The translations under genes were made by a program, and so were the position numbers. Under the pieces are notes generated by a model. That model had not been told where the DNA came from, did not search any database, and saw nothing but the letters and a program-made list of their open reading frames with translations. DNA of 62,987 nt from an uncultured Hyphomicrobiales bacterium (GTDB taxonomy: Bacteria; Pseudomonadota; Alphaproteobacteria; Rhizobiales; Xanthobacteraceae): positions 1 to 62,987 of the forward strand of contig CAIRGJ010000033.1 of NCBI GenBank assembly GCA_903878085.1, written 5' to 3'. Positions 7,692 to 62,987 of the stretch are shown one piece after another (the first letter of the stretch is position 1; every line of letters begins with the position of its first letter).

Positions 7692-7713
7692 AATATTGCA
7701 TGGAGACCTCATT

Positions 7714-9693
7714 ATGACTTCCAATGTGTTGAACAACCTGAGCATTAAAACCAAACTCTACAGCGGTTTTGGCCTACTCATCGCCATATGCCTGGGGCTG
7801 GCCCTCTTCGGCTTGGTGCAGTTTGGTGCGATCAAGTCGACCACTCATGTCATGCAAGTTCAGGCGGGCAACGCCATACGCTCTGCGGAAGTCGTCGATT
7901 ATCTTGAGAAAATGCGTCGAAGCCTGCTTCGTTACGCCTACGACCATGATGCGCCTTCATTGAAGGAAAATGGCGAAGTCGCCGCGAAGGCCATTGCCGC
8001 CCTGCAAGTGTCCGAAAGAACGGCCATACGTGAGGACCAGCGCAATACATTCAAGTCGCTCCAGGGCGAGGTCGCCATCGCGCAGCAAAAAAGCGCTTTG
8101 TTGGTCGATGTGGTGAAGCGCGCAGAAGCGGAAAATGCCACCGCCTTCAAAAAGGGCAATACATTGGTCGCTGCCAGCGAAAAGCTTGACGATTCGCTCA
8201 AGGGTGCCGAGCCATCGTTTTTGGCCTTGGCGCACGAAATCGATTCGGCGTTGCAGAAAATGCGCATTGCCAGTTGGCGTACGCTGGCGCTGCTTGACCC
8301 GAACGGTCTGACGGCCGTCAAGGCTGCCGCTGGCAAGGTGCTTGCCGCCATTGCGGCGCTGGAGAAGGCCGAGCTCTCGCCAGATGCCCGCGCAGATATC
8401 GCGTCCTTTAAAACAGCCTTCGGCGAATACGCCACGATAGGCTCAACGGCGATTGAGAGTACGCTCAAGATCAAAGACATCTACATTAAAGATGTCGCTC
8501 CGCAAATCGTGAAAATGCAGGAGACCATGGCGGTATCGCAAGCGAGATCAACGCAGGGCTTCCAAAATTCTGGAGTCTCTGTTGACGAAACGATTGCGAG
8601 TTCGGAACTGGCCCAGCAGGTCATTGCCGCATTCTCGGTGTTCTTGGGCCTCGCGATGGCCTGGATTATTGGCCGCGCTATCGCCAACCCCATCGTTACG
8701 CTTGTCGGACAAATTAAGAAGCTCGCCGACGGAGACTTTAATAGCGTGCTGCCGGATTTTCGCCGCAACGACGAGATCGGGCAGATGGCGGCGGCTGTCG
8801 CTGAGATGACGCGGCGGGTACGCGCCATCATCAGCAACATCAAAGTGTCGGCGAACGAGGTCACCAACGCCTCGGCCGAGATCTCGACCAGCACCACCGA
8901 TCTGTCGCAGCGCACCGAGGAGCAGGCCGCCAGCCTGGAGCAAACCTCGGCGTCGATGGAAGAGATGACCGCGACAGTCAAAAAGAACGCCGAGAACGCC
9001 AGGGAAGCCAGCAATCTTGCCGCCAATACGCAAGATGTCGCCGATCGCGGCGGTCAAGTTGTCGCCAAGACCGTCGAGGCCATGGCGAAGATCGAGGACT
9101 CGTCGCGCAAGATTTCCGACATCATCGGGGTGATCGACGAGATCGCCCGTCAGACCAATTTGCTGGCGCTCAACGCGGCGGTCGAAGCGGCCCGCGCCGG
9201 CGAAGCTGGTCGCGGCTTCGCGGTGGTTGCAACGGAAGTGCGCAGCCTGGCCCAGCGTTCGTCGCAGGCCGCCAAGGACATCAAGGAGCTGATCACCAAC
9301 AGCAATGGCCAGGTCAAGGACGGCGTCGATCTGGTCAATAAGGCCGGTCAATCGCTCACAGAGATCGTCGAGTCGATCAAAAGGGTCACAGCCGTTATAG
9401 GTGAGATCGCCAATGCCAGTGCCGAGCAATCGACCGGGCTCGAAGAGATAAACAAGGCGCTGAACCAGATGGACGAGGTCACGCAGCAGAACTCGGCGCT
9501 GGTCGAGGAAAATGCCGCGACCGCCAAGACGCTTGAAGGTCAGGCCAAGTCGATGGACGACCAGGTCGCGTTCTTCCAGATCGCCGAAGGCGCCGGGCAC
9601 GGCGAGGAAGCGCAGGAGTTCAGCGAACAGCGCCCGGTTGCCGCCGCGCCGTCGCGCGGGCCTGCTGCCAAGCTGAAGAATCGCGCGGCATGA
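7714..9693 (+). CDS. Methyl-accepting chemotaxis protein (module 1)
   Basis: Transmembrane chemoreceptor, 659 aa. I start at the ATG at 7714, six bases after GGAGAC, rather than at the in-frame TTG at 7696. TM1 is near residues 15-35, followed by a long all-helical periplasmic region of about 270 residues, compatible with a helical bimodular-type sensor. TM2 (about 310-330) leads into a HAMP domain and a signalling hairpin with the tip motif [20 protein letters not shown]. The C-terminus is [14 protein letters not shown] and has no CheR/CheB docking pentapeptide. The ligand cannot be inferred. Confidence 0.96.
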
Positions 9694-10017
9694 TCCCGCG
9701 GATGTAATTCTCGTTTAATTACTGAAACGAGACGCGGCGCGAATAGGCTCCTCTCGTTATGCGCGAGAGGCGCACACCTCGATAATTTCTACGCGCCCTG
9801 AATGTGTATTTATCTAGCGGCACGCCACATGCGGCCGAGGTTTGACCACAACGAGCGGCCGCAATCTATTTTATCGATCCGTCTTGTTGTTTTGGATCGC
9901 AATATAAATAAGGCATTTCGTTACGATATTGTCGTAGGTGTCCCAATACAGACATCCGAAGAATCGTTTTGAAAAACGCGCCTTTGAGTTTGTTTGTAGG
10001 AAGCGCGTCGCAGACGC
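9694..10017. other. Intergenic region between modules 1 and 2 with two hairpins
   Basis: No gene is seen in this 324-base gap. It has two perfect inverted repeats soon after the receptor stop: TCTCGTTT/AAACGAGA (9709-9732) and CCTCTCG/CGAGAGG (9750-9770). Neither is followed by a good T run, so a terminator role is only possible. The second half is AT-rich and loosely resembles the region before the third cheW, but the 16-base motif is degenerate here. Confidence 0.5.
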
Positions 10018-10368
10018 ATGAATCGACATCTCAATTCGCCATCCACCTCAGCGAGCGCGTCTGCTCCAAGCCATTTTGGAAATGCCGACGCCGCTGAACG
10101 TGCGGCGGCGTCGATCCAAATCATAAAAATAATCAGCGGCGACGATCAATACGACACCGGCATCGTGGCGGCGCCCGAGATCGGCGGCTCGGCCAACATC
10201 ACCGATCTTCCGAAGCAGCCGGAGGAAGATGCGCGCAGCGCTTTCAGTCTGCGCAGCGCCTCCGCTGCACATCATGATCAATCCGCCCGCGCTCTTAGAC
10301 GCGGTCCCAATATCGCCGTTCCAAATCTTCCTCCGCCCAAGGGGAAGAGACATAGCTTTGGAGAATAG
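10018..10368 (+). pseudogene. Truncated, degenerate CheW remnant (module 2)
   Basis: This 116-codon open frame sits exactly where cheW sits in modules 1 and 3, ending 3 bases before the receptor ATG. It aligns in frame with CheW: SIQIIKIISGDDQYDTGIVA against [20 protein letters not shown]; then TDLPKQPEE against AHLPKQPEY; then ARSAFSLRSASAAHHD against [16 protein letters not shown]. After that the similarity ends and the C-terminal 70-80 residues are absent. The hydrophobic core positions of CheW are replaced by polar residues, so a functional CheW fold is unlikely. There is no frameshift or internal stop, which is odd for simple decay. It could be a repurposed small protein. Confidence 0.65.
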
Positions 10369-10371
10369 CCA

Positions 10372-12048
10372 ATGGCCAGTTTTCGGAAGTCTCTTAACCT
10401 GCAAGGCAAGTTCACGCTGGTTGTCGGCGCCGGCGTGTTGGCGCTTGCGATCTCAACCGTAGCGGTCGTCGCCTACCTTGAGTTTTCAAGCCTCGAACAT
10501 AAACTGCGAACCTCGTCGGAGAACGAGGTGAACTCGCTGAACTGGTTGGTCGATAGTGCGATGAAAATGCGGGTCGAGGACCCGGAAAACGTCGCCATCA
10601 AAGTCTTCAACGGGTGGTTCGAGAGCCGCAACAAGGAAAGCGCCGGCAAGCTTTGGAGTGTCTGGGGACCAAGCATTGTGACCTACATGGCGCAGAACGC
10701 TACGGGCCGGCCAGCAATGGTCGCGCGCGACGCCATCGACGAGGAGGCTTTGCGCACCGGTCTGCCGGTCGGGCGCTTCGTCAATGATACGTATCGATAT
10801 AGCTTGCCAATCGTGATGGGTGACAGCGCGGTGACCAAGCAGGAAGTCTGCATCGGGTGCCACGGTCCGGGCATGGGGGCAAAGAACGGCGATGTGATTG
10901 CCGTGTTTTCGAATAGCGTGCCGGCGACCGCCGATTTTGCCGCGTTGCGCCAACGCGCTCTGTTCATGGCGGGCGGCGCGTTGCTGGCAATATTGGCGCT
11001 GACATTGGCCGTCTGGTCGATATTCGGCCGCATGATTGCCCGGCCGCTGCATGCGCTTATCCGCCCGTTTGAGGATCTGGCCGACGGCAACTTCGCCACT
11101 GAGGTGCCGGGCCTCGGCCGCAAGGACGAAGTCGGGCAGATCGCTAACGCGGTAAGTCAGATGGCCGAAAAGGTCAGTGGCACCATTGCCGAGATCAAGG
11201 CGTCCGGGCGCGAAGTCACCAACGCCTCGGCCGAAATATCGACCAGCACCACCGATCTGTCGCAGCGCACCGAAGAGCAGGCCGCCAGCCTGGAAGAAAC
11301 GTCGGCCGCAATGGAGCAACTGTCCGCGACCGTGAAAAAGAACTCGGAAAACGCCCAACAGGCGAGTCAATCTGCTCGCACCACCCGAGACATCGCCGAT
11401 CACGGCGGCCAGGTGGTTGCCAAGGCGGTGGAAGCCATGGCCAAGATCGAGGACTCCTCGCGCAAGATCTCCGACATCATCGGCGTCATCGACGAGATCG
11501 CGCGCCAGACCAATTTGCTGGCGCTCAATGCGGCGGTCGAAGCCGCGCGCGCCGGCGAAGCCGGGCGCGGTTTTGCGGTGGTGGCCTCGGAAGTCCGCAG
11601 CCTGGCACAGCGTTCGTCGCAAGCCGCCAAGGACATCAAGGACCTTATCACCAACAGTAACGGTCAGGTTAAGGATGGCGTTGAACTCGTCAACCGCGCC
11701 GGCGCCTCGCTCGGCGAAATAGTCGAGTCGATCAAGGGCGTGGCCGCAATCGTTGCCGAGATCGCCAACGCGAGCCTCGAGCAGTCGATCGGCATCCAAG
11801 AGATCAACAAAGCCCTGACGCAGATGGACGAGGTGACCCAGCAGAACTCGGCGCTGGTCGAAGAGAATGCCGCCACTGCCAAGACCCTGGAGCATCAAGC
11901 CAAGGCGATGGACGATCAGGTCGCCTTCTTCCAGATTGCCGACGGCGCCGGACACGGCGAACAGCCGCAGCAGGTCAGCGAACAGCGCGCAGTTGCCGCC
12001 GCGCCGTCGCGCGGACCCGCCGCCAAGCTGCGCCATCGCGCGGCTTGA
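10372..12048 (+). CDS. Methyl-accepting chemotaxis protein with c-type haem motif (module 2)
   Basis: A 558-aa chemoreceptor. TM1 is at about residues 15-38. The periplasmic domain (about 40-195) resembles the Tll0287-like/DUF3365 sensor fold and contains CIGCH at residues 160-164, a CxxCH covalent haem-c site. TM2 is near 197-222, then HAMP and a signalling domain almost identical to modules 1 and 3, with the tip [20 protein letters not shown]. The C-terminus [14 protein letters not shown] has no docking pentapeptide. Redox or gas sensing is inferred from the haem motif, as known for haem-c chemoreceptors such as DcrA. It follows the cheW remnant by 3 bases. Confidence 0.93.
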
Positions 12049-53156: not shown

Positions 53157-54035
53157 ATGAAACCAGCCAAAGCGAAGCGTCGCTGGCAGATCTGGCGCGA
53201 CCGGCGCGGACAACTATCGCCGCTGCGGATCGCGGCGCTGGCGCTGTTGTTGTTCCCGCTGGCCAAGGCGCTGTTCGAGGCCGGCGACATCGCCCACGGC
53301 GCGCGGCCGCTCAACGACCTGATCCATCGCGCCGGCTTCTGGACGCTGATGTTCCTGGGCGTGACGTTGGCGGTGACGCCGTTCCGGCGCATCGCGCGCT
53401 ACGGCAATCTGATCGATGTGCGGCGCATGCTCGGCGTCGGCACGTTCTTCTATATCGCCACACATCTCACACTGTTCATCGCCGACCAGGGCTACGATCT
53501 CGGCAAAGTGGCGCACGAGATCAGCCATCGCGTCTATCTGATTGTCGGTGCGGTCGCCTGGCTTGGACTTGCGGCGCTGGCCATAACCTCGACCGACGCG
53601 ATGGTGAAGCGCCTTGGCGGCCTGCGCTGGCGCCGGCTGCATCAGGCGATCTATGTCATCGCGTTACTAGCGCTGATCCATTATTTCCAGCAGACCAAGG
53701 CGGACGTCACGGTGCCGACCTTCGTCGCCAGTCTGTTCGTGTGGCTGATCGGCTATCGCATGGTGGCGTGGTGGCAGGACAGTGGCGAGTTATCGACGCT
53801 TAGCCTGCTGGCGCTCGGCGTCGTGGTGTCGCTGCTGACCTTTGCGGGCGAGGCCATCGGCATCGGCATCGCGTTTCATGTCTCGCCGCTGCGCGTGCTC
53901 GATACGGTGTTCGATTTCGACGCCGGCATCAGGCCGGGCTGGCAGGTGCTTGCGGCCGGGCTCTGCGTCGTCATCATCGACTTCGTTCGCGCACGCCGGA
54001 ATAACAGGAATCTGCGCACCGTCGCGGCGGAATAG
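53157..54035 (+). CDS. msrQ: MsrQ-type haem membrane subunit
   Basis: A 292-aa ferric-reductase-like membrane protein (YedZ/MsrQ family) with several helices. The His-bearing segments DLIHRAGFWTLMFLGVT, YIATHLTLFIAD and LRWRRLHQAIYVIALLALIHYF fit the haem ligands. MsrQ feeds electrons to the periplasmic methionine sulfoxide reductase MsrP. No msrP is visible here; it may lie elsewhere. Confidence 0.88.
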   Translation: MKPAKAKRRWQIWRDRRGQLSPLRIAALALLLFPLAKALFEAGDIAHGARPLNDLIHRAGFWTLMFLGVTLAVTPFRRIARYGNLIDVRRMLGVGTFFYIATHLTLFIADQGYDLGKVAHEISHRVYLIVGAVAWLGLAALAITSTDAMVKRLGGLRWRRLHQAIYVIALLALIHYFQQTKADVTVPTFVASLFVWLIGYRMVAWWQDSGELSTLSLLALGVVVSLLTFAGEAIGIGIAFHVSPLRVLDTVFDFDAGIRPGWQVLAAGLCVVIIDFVRARRNNRNLRTVAAE

Positions 54036-54042
54036 GGCACGG

Positions 54043-54552
54043 CTAAATCTTCCGGCTGTCATAGGCCCAGTGCAGCAGGGCCTGACGCTGCCGCGGCCGG
54101 CAGAACACGTCGCCCGGTTCGCAATTCATCTGGATTTGGCGGACGTGACGGCGGATCGCTTTCCAGCGCCCGATCTGGCGTCGATCTTCGTCGGGCATCC
54201 GGCGGCCCCTATAATAGCGGCAATACCACTGGAACCAGCCGCGCGGATCGTCGGCGTGCAGCCAGCCTTTGGCCCGCCACACCGACAGCGGCTGACTGGC
54301 ATCGACGCCGAAAAAGTTGAGCGAGGGGGCGCGCTTTTTCGGCGCGAGTTTGGCGTTGGCGAACCAGCTCTTGGGAAATTCCTTGCGGCAATCGGTCATG
54401 TATTTGCCGGCGAACACGCCGAGCTTGAGCATCTGCGCCGGCGTCAATTGCGGCTTGAACGCGGGATCGAAACCGCGGCCGACGCCCGCTGTCAGGGTGT
54501 AGCGATAACCCTGCTGCATCTTGTCATGCACGATGACGGTGCGTTTACGCAT
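54043..54552 (-). CDS. Conserved hypothetical protein, basic and aromatic
   Basis: A 169-aa protein beginning MRKRTVIVHDKMQQGYRY at the ATG at 54552. Another ATG at 54609 would add 19 residues, MANVSLHF-type, that do not look like part of the family core. It has LTPAQMLKLGVFAGKYMTDCRKEFP and a Trp/Arg-rich C-terminal half (WFQWYCRYYRGRRMPDEDRRQIGRW). Family unknown to me. It lies opposite the flavodoxin-fold gene, with a short divergent gap. Confidence 0.8.
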   Translation of the reverse strand: MRKRTVIVHDKMQQGYRYTLTAGVGRGFDPAFKPQLTPAQMLKLGVFAGKYMTDCRKEFPKSWFANAKLAPKKRAPSLNFFGVDASQPLSVWRAKGWLHADDPRGWFQWYCRYYRGRRMPDEDRRQIGRWKAIRRHVRQIQMNCEPGDVFCRPRQRQALLHWAYDSRKI

Positions 54553-54639
54553 GGCGCTGGCATGCCCGGCAAATTGCGCCAAGTCAAAGTGCAATGAGAC
54601 GTTAGCCATTAGCGTCCATTCAAATCCTTGCGAGGGGCC

Positions 54640-55221
54640 GTGGCTAAAAAGATTATCATCATCGTCGGCAATTCGCAGACCGGCAGCTATAGCGAGGCGC
54701 TCGGGCAGGCTTATCTGCGCGGTGCCCAAAGCGGCGGGCACGAGGCGAGGCTGTTCGTCCTTGCCGACATGAAGTTCGACCCTATTTTGCGCGAAGGCTA
54801 TCGCCGGGCACAGCCATTGGAACCCGATCTTGCCGTCGCGCGTGAGGCATTCCTGGCGAGCGACCACGTGGTCTTCGTGTTCCCGCTTTGGCTTGGCGAC
54901 ATGCCGGCGCTGCTGAAGGGCTTTCTCGAGCGTCTGGTGCAGCCCGACTTGCTTGCGATCCAAGCCGGCCACGGCAACACGAGATGGAAGGTGTTCAAGG
55001 GTAAGTCGGCGCGCATCATCATGACCATGGGCATGCCGGGATGGTTTTATCGCTGGTTCTTCGGCGCGCACGCGTTGAAGCTGCTTAAGCGCAACATCCT
55101 GCACGGTGTTGGCATCAAGCCGGTGCGCACCGCCATCTACGGCAGGATCGAAGCGGTCGGCGAAGAGAAGCGCAAGCAGTGGCTGCGCGAGGTCGCGGCG
55201 CTTGGCCGCGCCGCCGCTTAA
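54640..55221 (+). CDS. NAD(P)H-dependent oxidoreductase, flavodoxin-like fold
   Basis: A 193-aa protein. KKIIIIVGNSQTGSYSEALG is the FMN phosphate-binding loop, and HVVFVFPLWLGDMPALLKGFLE is a typical second motif. Homologues include NQO/modulator-of-drug-activity-type enzymes. I use the GTG at 54640 after GAGGGG; a TTG at 54628 is possible. The end overlaps the convergent desaturase gene by 4 bases. Confidence 0.85.
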   Translation: MAKKIIIIVGNSQTGSYSEALGQAYLRGAQSGGHEARLFVLADMKFDPILREGYRRAQPLEPDLAVAREAFLASDHVVFVFPLWLGDMPALLKGFLERLVQPDLLAIQAGHGNTRWKVFKGKSARIIMTMGMPGWFYRWFFGAHALKLLKRNILHGVGIKPVRTAIYGRIEAVGEEKRKQWLREVAALGRAAA

Positions 55222-56231
55222 GCCTGCTTGCGCTCGGCAACCGGCAGCGCCTCGGCGCGCTTCGGCATCAACTGTCTGAAATGGCCGGCGGCCTTGATCA
55301 ACGGTGCCACCAGTTCGCCCTTCACCGTATGCGCGTCGGGATTGTCGGCAAAACCGAAAGTGAGCGGCTCGCGCTCCTTGGCGGGCACATAGAGCGTGCC
55401 GAACATCCAGTCCCACAGCGCCAGGCAACTGCCGAAGTTCTTGTTGAAGTGTTTCGGGTTGTCGGAGTGATGCACCTGATGGTGCGCCGGCGAGACAAAG
55501 ACGCGGCCGATTAAGCCGCGGAACGAGATCCACATATGCGAATGCTGCAGATGTACGTAAGTGTGGATGAACAGCACCAGAATAATGTTGGTATCGCTTA
55601 GTGCGTATTGGTACGTCGTATCGCCGAATAGGTAATTGCCGAGGCCGTTGGCGATCGCCGCCGAGACCGCGAGAATGTTGGCGAAGATCCAGGTGTAGAC
55701 CGGATGAACGCGGAAATTGGTCAGCGGTGTGAGGACCTGCGCGGTGTGGTGCACTTTGTGGAATTCCCACAGCACCGGCACCTTGTGGCTGAGCCAGTGG
55801 TTGAACCAGTAGCCGAGCTCGTAGGATAAAAACAGCATCGCGGTGATGATCGAGCGCGAGACATAAGTCGGCAAAGCCGACGGCGTCACCGGGCCTATGA
55901 CCGCGATCAATCCCGCGATGATGCCGTTGCTGATGAACTGATAGGACAGCACCGCCCAGCCGAACACCACGCCGAACACGAACACGTTGAAGAACAGATA
56001 GCCGATGTCGGCCTGGTTCGATTTGCTGGTGACGATGTGCTTGGGAAACAGTGCGCGCAGGATGGTGCGCCAGCGGATTTTGCGGCCGCGCTTGAGGCGC
56101 TGCCAGACGAAAAATGCCGCCGCGAAAAACAGCGCCGCGCCGAGCGAGGTCAGCGAGAAGTGCGAGCCGAGCGAGAAGAACAGCTTGCCGAGTTGGCCGA
56201 AGAAAAATCCGATGCCGGCTGAAAAATCCAA
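55218..56231 (-). CDS. Sterol desaturase/fatty acid hydroxylase family protein
   Basis: A 337-aa membrane di-iron enzyme with all three His motifs: NHWLSHKVP, WEFHKVHHT and SPAHHQVHHS. Three or four hydrophobic stretches precede them. The C-terminal third is soluble. The start is uncertain: I use a TTG at 56231 preceded by GGAG six bases upstream; a TTG at 56273 or a GTG at 56249 are alternatives. Substrate unknown. Confidence 0.85.
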   Translation of the reverse strand: MDFSAGIGFFFGQLGKLFFSLGSHFSLTSLGAALFFAAAFFVWQRLKRGRKIRWRTILRALFPKHIVTSKSNQADIGYLFFNVFVFGVVFGWAVLSYQFISNGIIAGLIAVIGPVTPSALPTYVSRSIITAMLFLSYELGYWFNHWLSHKVPVLWEFHKVHHTAQVLTPLTNFRVHPVYTWIFANILAVSAAIANGLGNYLFGDTTYQYALSDTNIILVLFIHTYVHLQHSHMWISFRGLIGRVFVSPAHHQVHHSDNPKHFNKNFGSCLALWDWMFGTLYVPAKEREPLTFGFADNPDAHTVKGELVAPLIKAAGHFRQLMPKRAEALPVAERKQA

Positions 56232-56314
56232 CGGATGCTCCTGATCCACGCGGAGCGTCCAATGTCTTACCAATCGGTAAATATTGCGTTAGGCAATCGA
56301 CGCAGAGTTGCGCC

Positions 56315-56590
56315 TTAGGCCAGCAAATCCGCATATTCCGCGTGCCGGGCGATGAAAGCGCCGACGAAAGGGCACAGCGGCACCACTTTGGCGCCTTCGG
56401 CGCGCAGCAGATCGAGCGCGCCGCGCACCAGCGCTGTGCCGATGCCCTGGCCGTTAATGTGCCGCGGCACTTCGGTGTGCATGATGGTGACGACATCGCC
56501 GTTGCGGCGGTAATTGGCAAAGGCAATTTGCCCGCCGGCATCGAGCTCGAAGCGGCGGCGTTCGGGATTGTCGCGAACCGCATTGGCCAT
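56315..56590 (-). CDS. Small GNAT-type acetyltransferase
   Basis: A 91-aa protein of the short GNAT (YjdJ-like) type: FANYRRNGDVVTIMHTEVP then INGQGIGTALVRGALDLLR with the Gln/Gly-x-Gly acetyl-CoA motif. The ATG at 56590 is the natural start. Role not clear. Confidence 0.85.
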   Translation of the reverse strand: MANAVRDNPERRRFELDAGGQIAFANYRRNGDVVTIMHTEVPRHINGQGIGTALVRGALDLLRAEGAKVVPLCPFVGAFIARHAEYADLLA

Positions 56591-56627
56591 ACGCCAAAAT
56601 GTAGTGCGCGCGGCCGGGAACGACAAG

Positions 56628-57218
56628 CTAGTGCTGCGGCGCCCTCGCATTGACCTGGACGAAGGCCGGCTCGCCCATGCCGAACAAGGTCGCCGTCGTC
56701 GCCACGGGAGGCTTGGTCGCGGCGAGGCCGAAGAAGAAGCTGGTCTTTCCCGCGCACAGATAATCGCTGAAGGTGAAGGTGATGACGTCGCCATCCTGTT
56801 CCGCCGATTTCAGGCCGATGCTGCCGAGCCCGCCGGTGGTGATGACGAAGACGTCGGCCTGGCTGTTCTGCACATAAGGCAGCGAAGCGACCGGCCCGAA
56901 ATTGATCACCAGTCCGGCGGTGCATTCGGTGAAACCGGCGCCGTTGGTGAGGTCGACGCGATAGAGATAGCCGGTCTTGCCGGCGGCGGGGGTGCCGGCC
57001 TTGGCCGCGAAAGTGCGCGACTGCAGCCGCGCGCCGGCGCCGAGCGGCATAAAGGTCAGATTGCCGACCGTGTCGCTGACGACGATCTTGCAACCGGGGT
57101 CGAACACGCAATTGACCGCCGGCGCGTTGACGTTGACGACCTTTAACGTGGCGGCGCGCGCATCGCCCGGCGCGAATAGCGCGACGACGGCTGTGACAAT
57201 GACAGTGATGAATTTCAT
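56628..57218 (-). CDS. Secreted hypothetical protein
   Basis: A 196-aa protein with a signal peptide (MKFITVIVTAVVALFAPGDARA, cut near 22). The mature part is beta-rich, with three Cys and motifs NAPAVNCVFDPGCKIVV and GYLYRVDLTNGAGFTECTAGL. The ATG at 57218 follows AAGGGGGC. No recognised family; probably periplasmic or surface. Confidence 0.75.
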   Translation of the reverse strand: MKFITVIVTAVVALFAPGDARAATLKVVNVNAPAVNCVFDPGCKIVVSDTVGNLTFMPLGAGARLQSRTFAAKAGTPAAGKTGYLYRVDLTNGAGFTECTAGLVINFGPVASLPYVQNSQADVFVITTGGLGSIGLKSAEQDGDVITFTFSDYLCAGKTSFFFGLAATKPPVATTATLFGMGEPAFVQVNARAPQH

Positions 57219-57384
57219 GGTGCCCCCTTGCCAGACGCCAAGCTGAAGCACGCAGTTTGCCTCCGCCCGAAACACAAGGCAAGGTTGCAGGGGCGACAGG
57301 GGCGCCCGTTTTCTGGCATAGTCCGCTGCGGCGGTTCGAAAAGCTCACCGCGCCGCGCTGCAACGTCCTGCCGGGAGACCTTTT

Positions 57385-58005
57385 ATGGCCGCCAACCTCA
57401 CGCTCTATCACGCCTCGCCGTCGCGCTCGTCGGTCGTGCTGTGGATGCTGGAGGAGGTGGGCGAGCCCTATGACGTCGAGCTCCTCAGCCTGAGCAAGGG
57501 CGACAACATGAAGGCCGGCTATCTGGCGGTCAATCCGATGGGAAAGGTGCCGGCGCTGCTGCACCACGGCGTCGCCATCACCGAACTCGCCGCGATCTGC
57601 AGCTATCTCGCCGACGAATTTCCCGACACCAAACTGAGCGTGCCGATCGGCACGCCGCGCCGCGGCGTCTACCTGAAATGGCTGTTCTTCGGGCCGGGCT
57701 GCCTCGAGCCGGCGATCATCGACCGGGCCGCGCCGCGCGCGGAGCCGGCCCGCCGCGGCATGCTCGGCTATGGCGACTTCGACACCACCATGAATGTGAT
57801 CGCCGATGCGGTGAGCAAGGCGACCTATCTGATGGGCGACCAGTTCACCGCCGCCGACGTGGTGATCGGCGCCAATATCCGCTGGGGCATGTCGTTCAAG
57901 ATCATTCCGGAGCGCAAGGAATTCGTCGATTACGTGGCCCGGCTGCTGGAGCGGCCCGCCTTGCAGCGCGCCGACGCCAAGGACAAGGCCTTCGCCGCGG
58001 CCTAG
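57385..58005 (+). CDS. Glutathione S-transferase family protein
   Basis: A 206-aa protein with an N-terminal thioredoxin-like domain (LTLYHASPSRSSVVLWMLEE, cis-Pro NPMGKVPALL, and the glutathione-binding ITELAAICSYL) and a helical C-terminal domain with the TAADVVIGANIRW motif. The ATG follows GGGAGA. Function beyond the family unknown. Confidence 0.92.
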   Translation: MAANLTLYHASPSRSSVVLWMLEEVGEPYDVELLSLSKGDNMKAGYLAVNPMGKVPALLHHGVAITELAAICSYLADEFPDTKLSVPIGTPRRGVYLKWLFFGPGCLEPAIIDRAAPRAEPARRGMLGYGDFDTTMNVIADAVSKATYLMGDQFTAADVVIGANIRWGMSFKIIPERKEFVDYVARLLERPALQRADAKDKAFAAA

Positions 58006-58128
58006 CGCGTTGGCCCGCCCTGCGGGCTTGTGACTAACTCCCCAATCGCGGCTTCGCAACGCGGCGGCGCTTGCTAGGATGACGGGCCCGGTGAATCGGT
58101 CCCGCATAGGCAACGGTAAGGAATCCCG

Positions 58129-58329
58129 ATGAAGCTCCTCTGCACGGTGCTCGGCCTCGCTCTGTTCGTTATCGCTGCCGTCTATTTCCTGATGCCGGCC
58201 GACGCGCTGCCGAGCTTTTTCCCCGGGCACGAAACCGGCCTGGCGCGCATGCGCTACAAGCACGGCATCGTTAGCGCGGTGATTGGCGTCGTGCTGCTGG
58301 CGGCGGGTCAGTTCATGGGGCGGCGCTAG
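58129..58329 (+). CDS. Small two-TM hypothetical protein
   Basis: A 66-aa membrane protein: helix 1 at about 3-22 (LLCTVLGLALFVIAAVYFLM), a short loop, helix 2 at about 47-62 (GIVSAVIGVVLLAAG). The ATG follows AAGGAA. It overlaps the convergent gene by 4 bases at the end. Confidence 0.75.
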   Translation: MKLLCTVLGLALFVIAAVYFLMPADALPSFFPGHETGLARMRYKHGIVSAVIGVVLLAAGQFMGRR

Positions 58330-58673
58330 CGGCGCGCTTTTACCGTTCGCGGGCGGGCGGCGCCTTTGCCGTGCTGGGTCAGGACGGCAAGCGCCTCCGG
58401 CGGCAACAGCGGAATACAGACGCGCAAACAGTCGAGCGGTTCGCCGCGGCAGCAGCGGCTGCGCCGGCATTGGCTGCGGTCGCAGAACTGCCAGGCGCCG
58501 ACAATGTTGGCGATCAGACGCCGTTGCACCGCGACCGCCGCAGGGACCGACACATGCTGGCGCGTCAGGGTGTCGAGGATGGCTTCCGCCACATCGATGA
58601 TTTTATGCTGCGCCTGTTTGATCCGATCGCGCAGCTCGGTGTTCGCTAGATCGTTGCCGGATGTTTGGTTCAT
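58326..58673 (-). CDS. Small conserved hypothetical protein
   Basis: A 115-aa protein: a helical N-terminal half (DLANTELRDRIKQAQHKIID), then a cysteine-rich C-terminal part (CDRSQCRRSRCCRGEPLDCLRVCIP) and a basic tail. The Cys cluster may bind metal. Family unknown. Confidence 0.65.
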   Translation of the reverse strand: MNQTSGNDLANTELRDRIKQAQHKIIDVAEAILDTLTRQHVSVPAAVAVQRRLIANIVGAWQFCDRSQCRRSRCCRGEPLDCLRVCIPLLPPEALAVLTQHGKGAARPRTVKARR

Positions 58674-58830
58674 TGCGGGCAAGCTCCATCGTTCTCGCGG
58701 CGCGGAATTGCGCCCGGGTTTTGTCATCCCCGCCGCAGCGGGGGCAGTATTCGCCCTCCCGAAAAGGGAGGGGGACGGCGCGCCAAGAGACGCTAACCAG
58801 TCCGTCTGTCACACCTTCTTCTCGAAGGTG

Positions 58831-58966
58831 TGGCGCCTCTCGGCGCGCCATCCGGCGTCTTACGGCGTCTGGTCCGCGCTTTCGGCCAGTCTCCCGAAGG
58901 ACACGCCGTCAGCGAGCTCCTCGCGGGGCACCCTAGTGTGCCCGGGCGGAGTCCGGCGCCGCCCGA
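58831..58966 (+). repeat. 137-bp dispersed repeat, copy B
   Basis: Inverted near-copy of 36120-36256. Blocks GCGTCTTACGGCGTC, TTTCGGCCAGTCTCCCGAAG, AGCGAGCTCCTCGC and CACCCTAGTGTGCCCGGGCG are shared. A perfect hairpin, CACACCTTC/GAAGGTGTG, sits next to the start, as CACACCG/CGGTGTG does in copy A. No protein is encoded by either copy in a conserved way. Confidence 0.75.
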
Positions 58967-59159
58967 GCGCGTGAGCCTGCTGAGCCCACGCCCGCGGGCG
59001 CCGGCCCGATCCTCACGAGCCGGAGCAACCGGTTCGCGCCCCTCATGGGGATCGGGCGACTAGGAATATAAGGCCGGTTTGGCGCGCGGGGATAAGTTTT
59101 TTGAAATTTTTACAAGGTGCGGAATTCTTGAGGGAATTGGCGGGGATAGATTTTATTTA

Positions 59160-59285
59160 ACCGCTGTCATTGCCGGGCTTGACCCGGCAATCCATGACGA
59201 CGTCCGGCAAAGACGCGCTTACGTAAGATTATCGTTTGCGGAATTATCATCATAGATGCCCGGGTCAAGCCCGGGCATGACGCAT
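59160..59285. repeat. Palindromic intergenic repeat
   Basis: TTGCCGGGCTTGACCCGGCAA and CCCGGGTCAAGCCCGGGC lie about 80 bases apart in opposite sense. Typical REP-like element. Confidence 0.6.
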
Positions 59286-59362
59286 CAGTGATTGCGAGCG
59301 CGGCCTTGGCGAAAATCGGCGAGGGCTTGCATCGCGTCCAACCCGGCCGCCGCAGTTTGCAA

Positions 59363-59629
59363 TCAGAATTCGCGCGTCGGCGCGTCGGTCAGCGGCGACC
59401 GTTTGGCGAGTAGCTTGTCGTGCCATTCGCGCGGCAGGCAGGCGCCGACGCACCAGGCGATGGGCGCGGTTGCCAGCAGGCTGACCGCCATGATCGCGAC
59501 GATCCAGAAACCGGCATTCGGCGTCAGCGGCGGGAAAATGGTCGCCGCATAGACGGCGGCGGTGAACGCAATGACATTGAGCGTCACGTAGAACAGCAGG
59601 GCAATTTGCGCCCGGATTCCGGTCGTCAT
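59363..59629 (-). CDS. Small two-TM hypothetical protein
   Basis: An 88-aa protein with two membrane helices (about 7-30, QIALLFYVTLNVIAFTAAVY; about 40-62, WIVAIMAVSLLATAPIAW) and a soluble tail. The ATG at 59629 is the first in a coding-like stretch. The DUF3828-like gene is upstream on the same strand. Function unknown. Confidence 0.7.
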   Translation of the reverse strand: MTTGIRAQIALLFYVTLNVIAFTAAVYAATIFPPLTPNAGFWIVAIMAVSLLATAPIAWCVGACLPREWHDKLLAKRSPLTDAPTREF

Positions 59630-59814
59630 TGGCAAAGCCTTTCGTTTCCCCGTTGGCGGGTTTGCCCCGCGCTGATCCGGACTACCGCGTCGAGGCGGCG
59701 CCCGATGTTCCGATTTGCGTATGATGTGCAAAAGCAACTGCGGACGCAACGATATTCGCGGGCGTTTACCGGAAGGGTGTTGTGCGATGCAGCAGGGATG
59801 GGCTCAGGCCAGCA

Positions 59815-60324
59815 TCAGCCTTTGAAGTCGGCGAGCATCTTGCGCAGCGACCAGGGCGTGTCGATGGCACCGCGGATGTCGTCGATGCGCCAGCGGTCGT
59901 TTTCCAGCACCATGTCGTAGCGGATGGTGCCGCGCGGTGTGGGCGTCATCGGGCCGGCTTTGTCCGAGATGTGAACGACGACGATCGCCGTGCGCGCGTC
60001 CTGCTTTTCGATGGCGACGTCGAAAGCTTTGACCAGCGGGTCCTGCGAATTGGTGACCAGATCGAAGTCGATCGGCCCCTGATCGCCTTGCGGCGTCTTG
60101 GCGGAGGCCTCAAGCCAGAGCTTGACGATGCGCGCGGAGAAATAGCGGCGGCGGTCTTTCTCCTCGACCCAGACAAACGCGCCGCCGGAGTCGCCCGCGC
60201 CGGTGGCGACGCGCTGGTAGATCGCGGTGATGACCGCGTCCGGCCCGTTGGCGGCGAAGGCGGGAAGGGCGGCAACGGTGGCTGTTGCGAAGGTGAGGGT
60301 GAGGAGAGTGCGGCGGGTGAGCAT
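59815..60324 (-). CDS. Secreted hypothetical protein, DUF3828-like
   Basis: A 169-aa protein with a twin-Arg-like signal peptide (MLTRRTLLTLTFATATVAALPAFA). The fold looks like the NTF2-like DUF3828 group: FSARIVKLWLEA, then FDVAIEKQDARTAIVVVHI, then DMVLENDRWRIDDIRG. The start ATG is at 60324. It is the last gene before the AT-rich island. Confidence 0.8.
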   Translation of the reverse strand: MLTRRTLLTLTFATATVAALPAFAANGPDAVITAIYQRVATGAGDSGGAFVWVEEKDRRRYFSARIVKLWLEASAKTPQGDQGPIDFDLVTNSQDPLVKAFDVAIEKQDARTAIVVVHISDKAGPMTPTPRGTIRYDMVLENDRWRIDDIRGAIDTPWSLRKMLADFKG

Positions 60325-60467
60325 GGAGGGAGTGTAGTTCGGTGTCCGCATGAAGCGAAGCGGAATGCGGGCCCATCCCGGGTTTTGCTGGGGCGACCTA
60401 CGTACAATTATTGGTTGTTTCGGTAGATGGTACCGCCATAATATCATCCTAGGTCAGGGGACCGGGA

Positions 60468-61202
60468 ATGGTAAAAAAAGTGAAGCGGCAGCGCCGCCGA
60501 AAGCGCGAAGCCTTGGTCCATCAGCATTTGGAAAACGTATCTCGTGATCTGCTTGAGCAGCATCCCGATATAGTTCGCCAATTTATTGGCCGCAACGCCG
60601 GCATCTACGCACTGTATCGAAAAGACAAATTGTATTACGTAGGCCTCGCGACCGGGCTTCGTGGCCGGCTAAAAGCGCACGTAAAGAATCGACACAGGGA
60701 GTCTTGGGACAGATTTTCAATCTATCTAACGATCAGAGACCAACACCTACGTGAAATTGAGGCGTTACTACTTCGTATCGCCAATCCACCAGGTGCAAAG
60801 CAGCGAGGTAAGCTCGCTCAATCGAAAGACATGCGCCGCGGTATTGCGCGGGCGATACGCGAAAAGCAATCCAATGAAGCGTCGGCTTTATTCGGACGAG
60901 AGACAACACCGGTCAGAAACCAAAAGCAGTCTGACGGGCGTGATAACGATCTTCTACGGCTTCTTCCACAGGGCGCGAGACGTAGAGGTACGCTCAGGGG
61001 TAAAACGTTCCGGGCTCGGGTTCGGCAAAACGGAAAAATATGGTTTGCCGGAAAATTCTATGAGTCCCTTTCGCTTGCTGCGCGTGCCGCAACTAAACAT
61101 CCAACGAACGGCTGGTGGTTTTGGCGAATTGAACGCGGTCGCAAGAATTGGGTGCGTTTGAACAAAATTCGCAAAGCTGGCACGCCGATTTATTTGAGGT
61201 AA
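60468..61202 (+). CDS. GIY-YIG nuclease with RAMA-like C-terminal domain
   Basis: A 244-aa protein. Residues 45-47 GIY and 57-59 YVG form the GIY-YIG motif, Arg 65/67 and Glu 97/98 are the expected catalytic positions. Residues about 168-240 (GKTFRARVRQNGKIWFAG, then NGWWFWRIERG) resemble the RAMA/DUF4357-type domain seen with methylation-linked restriction systems. N-terminus is Lys/Arg-rich. The gene is AT-richer than its neighbours. A defence role is inferred from domains and location. An ATG at 60468 with weak upstream GGGA. Confidence 0.8.
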   Translation: MVKKVKRQRRRKREALVHQHLENVSRDLLEQHPDIVRQFIGRNAGIYALYRKDKLYYVGLATGLRGRLKAHVKNRHRESWDRFSIYLTIRDQHLREIEALLLRIANPPGAKQRGKLAQSKDMRRGIARAIREKQSNEASALFGRETTPVRNQKQSDGRDNDLLRLLPQGARRRGTLRGKTFRARVRQNGKIWFAGKFYESLSLAARAATKHPTNGWWFWRIERGRKNWVRLNKIRKAGTPIYLR

Positions 61203-61262
61203 CACCAGAGCAGCGTTGCTACGAGAGACTTAGTCAACCTCTGCGATTCAATGGACGATTAA

Positions 61263-61559
61263 ATGGCCAAAATATTCTTGTCATATTCTCAATCTGATCA
61301 CGAGTTCGCATATCAAATGGCGGAACGGTTGAAGCTTGTCGGCAACGAAATAACGATCGACGTCGAGTCAACCTCTGCAGGGCAGGATTGGCGAGGACGA
61401 CTGTCAGAAGGTCTGAGAAATGCGGAAGTGTTTATTGTTCTAGTCTCGCAATCATCGATTAGATCTCCCTTCGTACAACAAGAGCTGGGTGCGGCCAGAG
61501 CGTACGCGGCTGAGTCTGACCGCATGCTTGTTGTCCCGGTTCTTATCGATGACATTTAA
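61263..61559 (+). CDS. TIR-domain protein, N-terminal part of a split gene
   Basis: A 98-aa TIR domain: KIFLSYSQSDHEFAYQMAERL is box 1, then the DVESTSAGQDWR and SEGLRNAEVFIVLVSQ segments, with Glu 74 in SPFVQQELGAARAY at the position of the NAD-cleaving residue. It ends with TAA directly after VPVLIDDI, the exact place where longer TIR domains continue. The next ORF starts at the following base in the same frame, so TIR and downstream part look like one protein interrupted by a single ochre codon. AT-rich, atypical for this chromosome. Confidence 0.85.
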   Translation: MAKIFLSYSQSDHEFAYQMAERLKLVGNEITIDVESTSAGQDWRGRLSEGLRNAEVFIVLVSQSSIRSPFVQQELGAARAYAAESDRMLVVPVLIDDI

Positions 61560-62222
61560 ATGCCGTCTGCTATCCAAGATATACTTGCCATAAGAGGTGC
61601 GGATAGGAATCTAGATGAGATCGTAACAAAAATAAGCAGCGCGATATCAGTGTTTATTGGTCGTCGCGTTGCCAAGGATGAGAAGGCCGCAGAAGTCGCA
61701 AAAAGAATTGAAACAAATGCAGCCACGTACATTGACGAAGCTGTGCAAACGCAAAAAAACGCAGAATCTCAAAACCGGATAATTGGAATAGTTTGGTATG
61801 TATCTGGCTTTCTATCCCTTTTGGGTGGAATCGGTTTCGCGGCGTTTGCTCTGTCGCATCCCAATACGGCGAAGTCGGTTGAGTGGGCTGATGTTGGTGT
61901 AGCAGCGCTGAAAAGCATTGTTGTTATTGGCCTTTTAGCCGCATGTTCTAAATATGCTTTTGCACTGGGGAAGTCGTACATTAGTGAATCGTTGAAATGC
62001 TCCGATCGAATCCACGCTATTGCGTTCGGAAAATTTTATCTTCAGGCTTACGGAGATAAAGCCACGTGGGCTGAATTAAAGGAAGTATTCCAGCACTGGA
62101 ATATTGATCGGACGTCCACGTTTTCGTCGTTAGATGCGGCGCAAATTGATCCGCAAATTTTGAGCTTGCTGGGTGACGTAGCTAAGTCCGCGCTTGGCCA
62201 GAAAAATAAAAAGACCAGCTAA
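61560..62222 (+). CDS. Two-TM effector-like protein, C-terminal part of a split TIR gene
   Basis: A 220-aa protein. Residues 1-35 (MPSAIQDILAIRGADRN...) read as the last segment of a TIR domain. Coiled helix at about 35-72, TM1 at about 73-97 (IIGIVWYVSGFLSLLGG), TM2 at about 112-130, then a soluble helical C-terminus. The two-TM plus helical layout recalls SLATT-type effectors, but I cannot confirm. The ATG is immediately after the TAA, so translation by reinitiation is possible. No Shine-Dalgarno of its own. Confidence 0.75.
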   Translation: MPSAIQDILAIRGADRNLDEIVTKISSAISVFIGRRVAKDEKAAEVAKRIETNAATYIDEAVQTQKNAESQNRIIGIVWYVSGFLSLLGGIGFAAFALSHPNTAKSVEWADVGVAALKSIVVIGLLAACSKYAFALGKSYISESLKCSDRIHAIAFGKFYLQAYGDKATWAELKEVFQHWNIDRTSTFSSLDAAQIDPQILSLLGDVAKSALGQKNKKTS

Positions 62223-62236
62223 GGCAGTGAGTCGTT

Positions 62237-62987
<751 letters not shown>

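What the first reader, a model, noticed from the sequence alone, without database searches (positions are those of the whole stretch)
60430..62225. AT-rich defence-like island beside uvrA
Between the DUF3828-like gene and uvrA lies about 1.8 kb at clearly lower G+C (27 of 60 in 61681-61740, counted by hand) holding a nuclease and a TIR/two-TM pair on one strand. Tight packing and foreign composition suggest one acquired unit, perhaps a two- or three-gene anti-phage system in which the nuclease senses or cuts modified DNA and the TIR protein triggers abortive infection. I know of no described system with this exact set.
Basis: inference. Interest (0 to 1): 0.7.

Follow-up and report, generated by a model that had tools for sequence, protein, structure and literature searches.

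The report
Swappable defence-gene slot beside uvrA
Beside the DNA-repair gene uvrA this bacterium carries a predicted DNA-cutting enzyme and a broken cell-suicide-type gene, which look like two unrelated arrivals in a slot where its relatives carry many different defence genes against viruses.

Summary
The island is real: it is the lowest-G+C 1.5 kb of the window (0.483 against 0.625). It holds an intact GIY-YIG + RAMA nuclease gene (60468-61202) and one TIR-2TM gene that an in-frame stop splits into two ORFs (61263-61559, 61560-62222). Intact relatives of the second gene are single 306-321 aa proteins.

The "one acquired unit" reading is not supported. None of 4 full-length nuclease relatives has the TIR gene in the flank held, and no fetched TIR-2TM or 2TM relative has the nuclease.

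What recurs is the place. DNA just 3' of uvrA is low in G+C in 14 of 19 genus slots (p=0.016) and 30 of 36 family slots (p=5e-7). Cargo within 3 kb differs: DarTG, Mrr, OLD-like, SIR2-like, PDC-S18, CAP12-type TIR, retron XI, LmuB. In 14 of 70 slots a displaced copy of part of uvrA's last 200 bases lies downstream; other ORF ends gave 2 of 45.

Best reading: two independent defence cargoes in a uvrA-flank hotspot, nuclease probably working, TIR gene probably dead here. Defence function is untested.

The parts
60468..61202 (+). GIY-YIG + RAMA predicted endonuclease, 244 aa, intact
   Evidence: Pfam RAMA 36.6 bits (cut-off 35.2), GIY-YIG 21.0 (cut-off 22.6); PADLOC PDC-S14 5e-15; G45, Y47, Y57, V58, G59, R65, R67, H71, E96, E98 invariant in 5 aligned sequences, the window and 4 relatives; differences from the G004 copy fall 38/33/132 on codon positions 1/2/3 of 244 codons, i.e. 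purifying selection (dN 0.13, dS too high to compute)
60993..61175 (+). RAMA domain, similar to the C-terminal domain of the host's own CcrM
   Evidence: only two RAMA hits in the genome, this one and one in an ORF that is CcrM by NCBIfam, 608.8 bits but under its cut-off of 830; the CcrM model touches the window protein at E=0.006; BLASTP 32% over 44 aa, E=5e-6 for the single comparison
61263..61559 (+). TIR part (98 aa) of an interrupted TIR-2TM gene, ends at an in-frame TAA
   Evidence: TIR_2 1.4e-20, covering positions 1-92 of 122 of the model; Glu74 invariant in 4 aligned copies and aligned with a Glu in solved TIR proteins 9m0n and AbTIR 8g83
61560..62222 (+). Remainder of the same gene: coil, two membrane helices, conserved C-terminal DRIHAI.FGKFYL...F.HWN tail (220 aa)
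   Evidence: hydropathy peaks at residues 73-99 and 107-138; family alignment; phrog_2628, unknown function, 1.4e-15; no Pfam match at E<=1 and no NCBIfam match at E<=0.01
62237..62987 (-). 3' end of uvrA, the conserved flank of the slot
   Evidence: ORF; displaced copies of parts of its last 200 or so bases lie downstream of uvrA in 14 of 70 slots tested
59815..60447 (-). DUF3828-like gene on the other side of the island, itself patchy in the genus
   Evidence: 22.5 bits, cut-off 26.0; hits in 9 of 60 genomes incl. its own, 5 of the 36 genus genomes among them
57385..58005 (+). GST gene, far-side marker of the slot
   Evidence: found downstream of uvrA in 8 of 30 fetched genus flanks (up to 8 kb, many shorter), about 1 kb from uvrA in G003, G018 and G021

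Best explanation
The island is the current cargo of a defence-gene slot at the 3' end of uvrA. It holds two single-gene cargoes, not one system. (1) The nuclease: RAMA, the DNA-holding domain also found at the end of the host's CcrM methylase, is predicted to dock the protein on DNA, and the GIY-YIG domain to cut it, so that incoming DNA is destroyed as in a type IV or stand-alone restriction enzyme. Domain make-up and purifying selection are shown; the cut, the target and any modification sensing are inferred. (2) The TIR-2TM gene: in intact relatives a TIR domain with its conserved Glu is joined through a coil to two membrane helices, so the likely action is NAD+ consumption at the membrane when infection is sensed, killing or stalling the cell (inferred). 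Here the gene is cut by an in-frame stop inside the TIR part and is probably inactive. Delivery: DNA carrying a defence gene together with a piece of the uvrA tail is repeatedly joined beside uvrA, leaving displaced uvrA tails; the recombination route is inferred.
For: Lowest G+C of the window. Low G+C next to uvrA in 14 of 19 genus slots (p=0.016) and 30 of 36 family slots (p=4.9e-7), against DNA 3.5-6 kb away. Unlike cargo within 3 kb of uvrA from genome to genome: DarG 6e-57 + DarT (G008), PDC-S18 1e-135 (G010), Mrr-type (G016, G064), OLD/AriA/GajA-like (G017, G005), SIR2-like (G002), CAP12-type TIR (G027), retron XI 3e-172 (G137), LmuB 7e-42 (G108). GIY-RAMA lies within 1.5 kb of uvrA in the window, in G004 (82% identical) and in L020, another genus (70%). 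Displaced pieces of the uvrA tail in 14 of 70 slots against 2 of 45 other ORF ends; 5 of 11 displaced tails score higher against another genome's uvrA tail than against their own. No pairing of the two genes elsewhere. An intact TIR-2TM gene lies beside a patatin gene and an annotated nucleotidyltransferase on Sinorhizobium pSinB; others lie in phage-like contigs.
Against: The window's own slot has no displaced uvrA tail within 8 kb. Five of 19 genus and 6 of 36 family slots show no dip in G+C (e.g. G313, G714, G131). Of 20 cargo proteins from 19 genomes scanned with PADLOC, 7 gave no hit and 2 only weak ones, and the 20 were picked by eye, so hit rates are not unbiased. In the tail test, genus slots were queried with about 104 bases of uvrA and family slots and controls with 250; the controls are mechanical ORFs of 4 loci, not one conserved gene across the same genomes. 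Two of the 5 tails nearer to a foreign uvrA are so by a hair (G005 55 against 54, G030 58 against 54). The nuclease's GIY-YIG score is under the Pfam cut-off. Two nuclease relatives lie beside DNA methylase genes (L021, L022), which fits an R-M partner role too. The pSinB nucleotidyltransferase had no Pfam hit. No phage test exists.
Confidence: 0.68

Rival explanations
1. One acquired two-gene system: the nuclease senses or cuts modified phage DNA and the TIR-2TM protein triggers abortive infection.
For: Same strand, 60-base gap, shared low G+C, shared slot.
Against: The pairing is seen only in loci of the window itself: 0 of 4 full-length GIY-RAMA relatives and none of the other TIR-2TM/2TM loci hold both. 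G004 and L020 keep the nuclease near uvrA without the TIR gene. The TIR gene is interrupted.
Confidence: 0.1
2. The nuclease is an accessory of restriction-modification systems: RAMA reads or tolerates a methylation mark set by a partner methylase, and the window copy has lost its partner or uses the host's CcrM mark.
For: In L021 it precedes a D12 adenine methylase (3.8e-20) and a DpnII-like gene (1.9e-8); in L022 it is in a row with an N6/N4 methylase (4.5e-38). The host has a CcrM-type gene, whose RAMA is the only other one in the genome.
Against: No methylase is seen next to it in the window, G004 or L020.
Confidence: 0.22
3. The split TIR gene works as two proteins by termination and immediate restart (TAA directly followed by ATG).
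For: The second ORF starts with ATG right after the stop and stays open for 220 codons. One phage-like copy, L036, is also in two ORFs (188 and 106 aa), though that looks like damage of another kind.
Against: Five distinct relatives seen whole are single proteins (L031, L032, L038, L091, L114); the TIR_2 match here ends at position 92 of 122, so the domain is cut short. One in-frame stop with no other damage also fits a recent mutation or a sequencing error.
Confidence: 0.1
4. Ordinary gene turnover: any intergenic space of these genomes collects such genes, and uvrA is nothing special.
For: 2 of 45 other ORF ends show a downstream copy, both inside what looks like a tandem gene array of the window; I made no control with another conserved gene across the same genomes.
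Against: G+C dip at the same place in 30 of 36 family slots and displaced pieces of the uvrA tail in 14 of 70.
Confidence: 0.15

Closest known systems
GIY-YIG-RAMA fusions / PADLOC candidate PDC-S14
   Same: Same two domains; PADLOC PDC-S14 models match it and 3 relatives. The fusion is named in the discussion of PMC11037411 as one that might use RAMA like a methylation-sensing domain (passages seen).
   Different: Match to PDC-S14 is moderate (53 bits). No activity is published in what I saw; three PMC papers hold the name PDC-S14 (listing only).
wH-GIY-YIG endonucleases Ahi29725I and Apa233I (PMC11037411)
   Same: GIY-YIG nuclease fused to a DNA-reading domain; reported as m6A-dependent type IV enzymes (passages).
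   Different: Reader domain is a winged helix at the other end, not RAMA.
TIR effectors of Thoeris, CBASS and TIR-NLR systems; PADLOC 'TIR-TM'
   Same: TIR_2 domain with the conserved Glu; membrane part in TIR-TM by its name.
   Different: The 2TM + tail module does not match the PADLOC TIR-TM model; only the TIR half matches TIR models. The same 2TM module occurs behind HNH or coil N-termini in other loci.
Defence islands and hotspots of E. coli (PMC10121019, search listing only)
   Same: Defence systems clustered at recurring sites.
   Different: Here the flank is uvrA in Xanthobacteraceae-type genomes, with displaced uvrA tails. Three searches listed no paper on such a site (listings only).

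Membership tests
GIY-YIG endonuclease superfamily | GIY...YIG motifs plus downstream Arg and Glu of the active site | tested here: met
   G45, Y47, Y57, V58, G59, R65/R67, H71, E96/E98 invariant in 5 sequences; Pfam score 21.0 is below the 22.6 cut-off. Which residues are catalytic is recalled
RAMA domain | Match to the Pfam RAMA model above cut-off | tested here: met
   36.6 bits against 35.2
Type IV (modification-dependent) restriction enzyme | Cuts modified but not unmodified DNA | not testable with these tools
   Biochemistry needed; published RAMA data point both ways
TIR domain NADase effector | TIR domain with conserved Glu | tested here: met
   TIR_2 74.4 bits, cut-off 28; Glu74
TIR domain NADase effector | Intact reading frame in this genome | tested here: not met
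   In-frame TAA at 61557-61559
PADLOC TIR-TM | Full-length match to the TIR-TM model | tested here: not met
   Only 16.1 bits over the TIR part; the 2TM part has none; of 4 intact TIR-2TM relatives scanned, 1 has a weak N-terminal match and 3 none
Thoeris | ThsA-type partner gene beside the TIR gene | tested here: not met
   Neighbours are the GIY-RAMA gene, uvrA and a DUF3828-like gene
Two-gene GIY-RAMA + TIR-2TM defence system | Pairing recurs in unrelated genomes | tested here: not met
   Of 176 loci held, only the 8 taken from the window's own stretch hold both
Defence hotspot beside a conserved gene | Same flank, unlike defence cargo in different genomes | tested here: met
   no matched control gene
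Site-specific integrative element | Integrase gene and exact attachment core | tested here: inconclusive
   Displaced pieces begin at varying points, 27 to about 200 bases before the uvrA stop; slots were not scanned for integrases as a whole

The most novel reading that the evidence does not exclude
In Xanthobacteraceae-type bacteria the last 100-200 bases of uvrA act as a landing platform for very small defence cassettes (one or two genes, no integrase of their own seen, though not searched for systematically) that travel with their own copy of the uvrA tail and stack up in tandem, possibly helped by a cutting enzyme supplied in trans such as the GIY-YIG nuclease found at the same spot in two genera. 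The platform would be a new kind of defence-gene exchange site built on a DNA-repair gene.
Probability: 0.15. Interest if true: 0.75.

Novelty: new variant of a known kind. Interest (0 to 1): 0.47.

Why it matters
If right, the place is worth more than the pair of genes: uvrA's 3' flank becomes an address at which to look for new defence genes across a family of bacteria, and 7 of the 20 low-G+C cargo proteins scanned with PADLOC matched no model there. The TIR-2TM protein shows a membrane module that recurs behind different front ends (TIR, HNH, coil), which hints at a swappable effector family with no Pfam or NCBIfam model found here.

Tried and rejected
Rejected: that the TIR and 2TM ORFs are two genes (intact relatives are one protein; one relative, L036, is itself split). 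Rejected as shown: a joint system. Considered and left open: homing by the GIY-YIG enzyme, and R-M partnership.

Led nowhere: the GIY-RAMA alignment against viral contigs (none), phage records for the 2TM part (none), E. coli genomes with one P2-like TIR gene (near mode, none), Rfam on 54000-62987 and tRNA/tmRNA on the window (none), solved structures for the nuclease (nothing credible), promoter scan.

First run of the slot test had the uvrA stop misplaced in four genomes (G004, G013, G017, G023), because the displaced tail scored higher. One search corrected this for the G+C test; the genus result went from p=0.0002 (17 of 21, also counting the window and L020) to p=0.016 (14 of 19). Family slots: I fetched 40 of the 88 matched genomes outside the genus, mostly better-scoring ones with long contigs, so this is not a random sample. 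L052 and L053 were cut with extra uvrA sequence; their apparent second tails are uvrA itself and were not counted.

Full report
1. What is there. The stretch 60430-62225 has G+C 0.487 against 0.625 for the window, and no 1500-bp window elsewhere (1230 tested in 50-base steps) is lower. It carries an intact 244-aa ORF at 60468-61202 and, 60 bases on, an ORF at 61263-61559 followed in the same frame by another at 61560-62222. The island ends 14 bases from the stop of uvrA, which runs the other way.

2. The nuclease. RAMA passes its Pfam cut-off, GIY-YIG falls just short, but the motif residues (G45, Y47, Y57, V58, G59), Arg, His and Glu are invariant among the window and four relatives at 44-82% identity. 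PADLOC files it as candidate PDC-S14. Between window and G004 the differences fall 38, 33 and 132 on codon positions 1, 2, 3, so the gene has been kept working. The only other RAMA in the genome is in a CcrM-type methylase, and the two RAMA domains share a recognisable block. In passages of PMC9963953 the CcrM RAMA is said to contact DNA backbone without base-specific contacts, and 6mA did not change binding by MPND, against an earlier pull-down result cited there; in passages of PMC11037411 GIY-YIG-RAMA fusions are mentioned as possible modification readers. DNA holding by RAMA is therefore a fair inference; modification sensing is open. Since the host carries a CcrM-type gene, cutting of every m6A site would hurt it (inference).

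3. The TIR gene. TIR_2 is clear, and Glu74 is invariant in 4 aligned copies and aligned with a Glu of solved TIR proteins. The next 220 codons hold a coil (by eye), two hydrophobic segments and a conserved tail that matches phrog_2628, function unknown. Intact single proteins of this layout occur on Sinorhizobium pSinB (L038, 310 aa), in phage-like contigs (L031 and L032, 321 aa; L033-L035 match alike; L091, 316 aa, its TIR part by eye, no PADLOC hit) and in genome G895 (L114, 306 aa). L036 is a split copy. In L032 and L033 the gene stands among P2-like tail genes (by eye); on pSinB it stands beside a patatin gene and an annotated nucleotidyltransferase, the latter without a Pfam hit at 0.001, a CBASS-like set by recall. 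In other loci the same 2TM module follows an HNH domain (L092; L093 by eye) or a coil, in L106-L111 near repressor-like and integrase-like genes (by eye). The window copy is cut inside the TIR part by an in-frame stop; whether this is a mutation or a sequencing error cannot be told here.

4. The pairing. Full-length GIY-RAMA relatives: 3 of 295 other family genomes (G004, G082, G315), with 4 more partial hits; 3 of 5 loci in the genome collection, two of them the same contigs by length (L020=G082, L021=G315) and one new (L022); none besides the window among 385 class genomes at E<=1e-15. The 2TM part: none besides the window among 296 family genomes, 1 other of 385 in the class, 1 other of 398 in the phylum at E<=1e-8, 12 plasmid records, 6 and 21 viral loci in two scans that overlap. 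tblastn of all pieces on the 176 loci held finds nuclease and TIR or 2TM together in 8 loci, all of them the window's own stretch. Flanks held differ: L026 19 kb, L020 and L021 16.7 kb, L022 3.7 kb in all; among TIR-2TM loci L031 starts at the gene and L114 has about 1.5 kb a side. Nuclease neighbours elsewhere: in L021 a D12 adenine methylase, a DpnII-like gene, AIPR and SLATT_5; in L022 an N6/N4 methylase; in L020 a DUF5677-like gene (below cut-off) and an 8xMP membrane protein; in G004 a DUF4258 gene and a membrane-type protein.

5. The slot. GIY-RAMA lies within 1.5 kb of uvrA in the window, G004 and L020, which made me look at the uvrA flank itself. uvrA was matched in 31 of 43 genus genomes including the window's own (E<=1e-100); I fetched the 3' flank of the other 30, and of 40 more genomes of other genera. 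The first 1.5 kb after uvrA is lower in G+C than DNA 3.5-6 kb away in 14 of 19 genus slots (p=0.016) and 30 of 36 family slots (p=4.9e-7) that were long enough to test; window (0.483 against 0.650) and L020 (0.510 against 0.636) are not counted in these. Cargo within 3 kb differs: DarG/DarT (G008), SIR2-like (G002), PDC-S18 (G010), CAP12-type TIR/PDC-S35 (G027), Mrr (G016, G064), OLD/AriA/GajA-like ATPases (G017, G005), DUF2971 (G013, G124), retron XI RT-protease (G137), LmuB (G108). Of the 20 proteins from 19 genomes scanned with PADLOC, no hit: G033, G023, G113, G104, G087, G110, G086; weak only: G124, G114 (at E<=0.001, 82 at E<=1e-5). The 20 were picked by eye; all are among 72 low-G+C ORFs in 44 genomes listed.

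6. Displaced uvrA tails. In 14 of 70 slots with at least 1 kb of sequence a second copy of part of the last 200 or so bases of uvrA lies downstream (10 genus genomes, L020, and G062, G154, G064), best pieces 33-203 bases long and 74-95% identical; G023 has two copies. In G062 the piece is only 33 bases, and in G154 it is an inner part (-198 to -121). The same kind of test on 45 other ORF ends (mechanical ORFs of 250 aa or more in the window, L026, L020 and L021) gave 2, both in what looks like one tandem array of the window; genus slots were queried with a shorter stretch (about 104 bases) than family slots and controls (250). The copies begin at different points before the stop. Of 11 tails examined, 5 score higher against another genome's uvrA tail than their own: G004 99 against 91, G013 61 against 51, G064 85 against 79, G030 58 against 54, G005 55 against 54. 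In G004, G017 and G005 a short unknown gene ends within about 90 bases before the displaced tail. This points to foreign DNA with a uvrA tail being joined repeatedly beside uvrA; whether by a site-specific enzyme or by ordinary recombination is not decided. The window itself shows no such copy within 8 kb.

7. Conclusion. Acquired, defence-like, but two cargoes of a hotspot rather than one new system; nuclease probably active, TIR gene probably broken. Literature: searches; no paper on a uvrA-flank defence slot in the listings. Only passages of PMC11037411 and PMC9963953 were seen.

Noticed in passing
uvrA flank in G004, G005, G013, G017, G023, G026, G028, G030, G034, G250, L020, G062, G064, G154: Displaced second copies of parts of the uvrA 3' tail downstream of uvrA, two of them in G023; sign of serial insertions.
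   Followed up: partly
L038 3631-6597 (Sinorhizobium pSinB): Intact TIR-2TM gene directly beside a patatin gene and an annotated nucleotidyltransferase, a CBASS-like set.
   Followed up: partly
L092, L093, L106-L111: The 2TM + tail module (phrog_2628-like) sits behind an HNH domain or a coil, in several phage contigs near repressor-like and integrase-like genes; may be a family of swappable membrane effectors.
   Followed up: partly
G004 (L026), G005, G010, G017, G026, G250 near uvrA: A short unknown gene of about 70 aa ('gene Y') recurs beside uvrA, twice in G017, and ends shortly before the displaced uvrA tail in G004, G017 and G005.
   Followed up: no
L021 7950-13048: Bradyrhizobium frederickii island: GIY-RAMA, D12 adenine methylase, DpnII-like gene, AIPR, SLATT_5 in one stretch.
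   Followed up: partly
window 7696-12048: Two long ORFs on the + strand whose 3' ends recur 2-3 kb downstream at 85-87% identity, in a stretch of lower G+C; looks like a tandem gene array.
   Followed up: no
window 59166-59281: Inverted repeat with 35-base arms (83% complementary, 46 bases apart) beyond the DUF3828-like gene; looks like a dispersed palindromic repeat.
   Followed up: no
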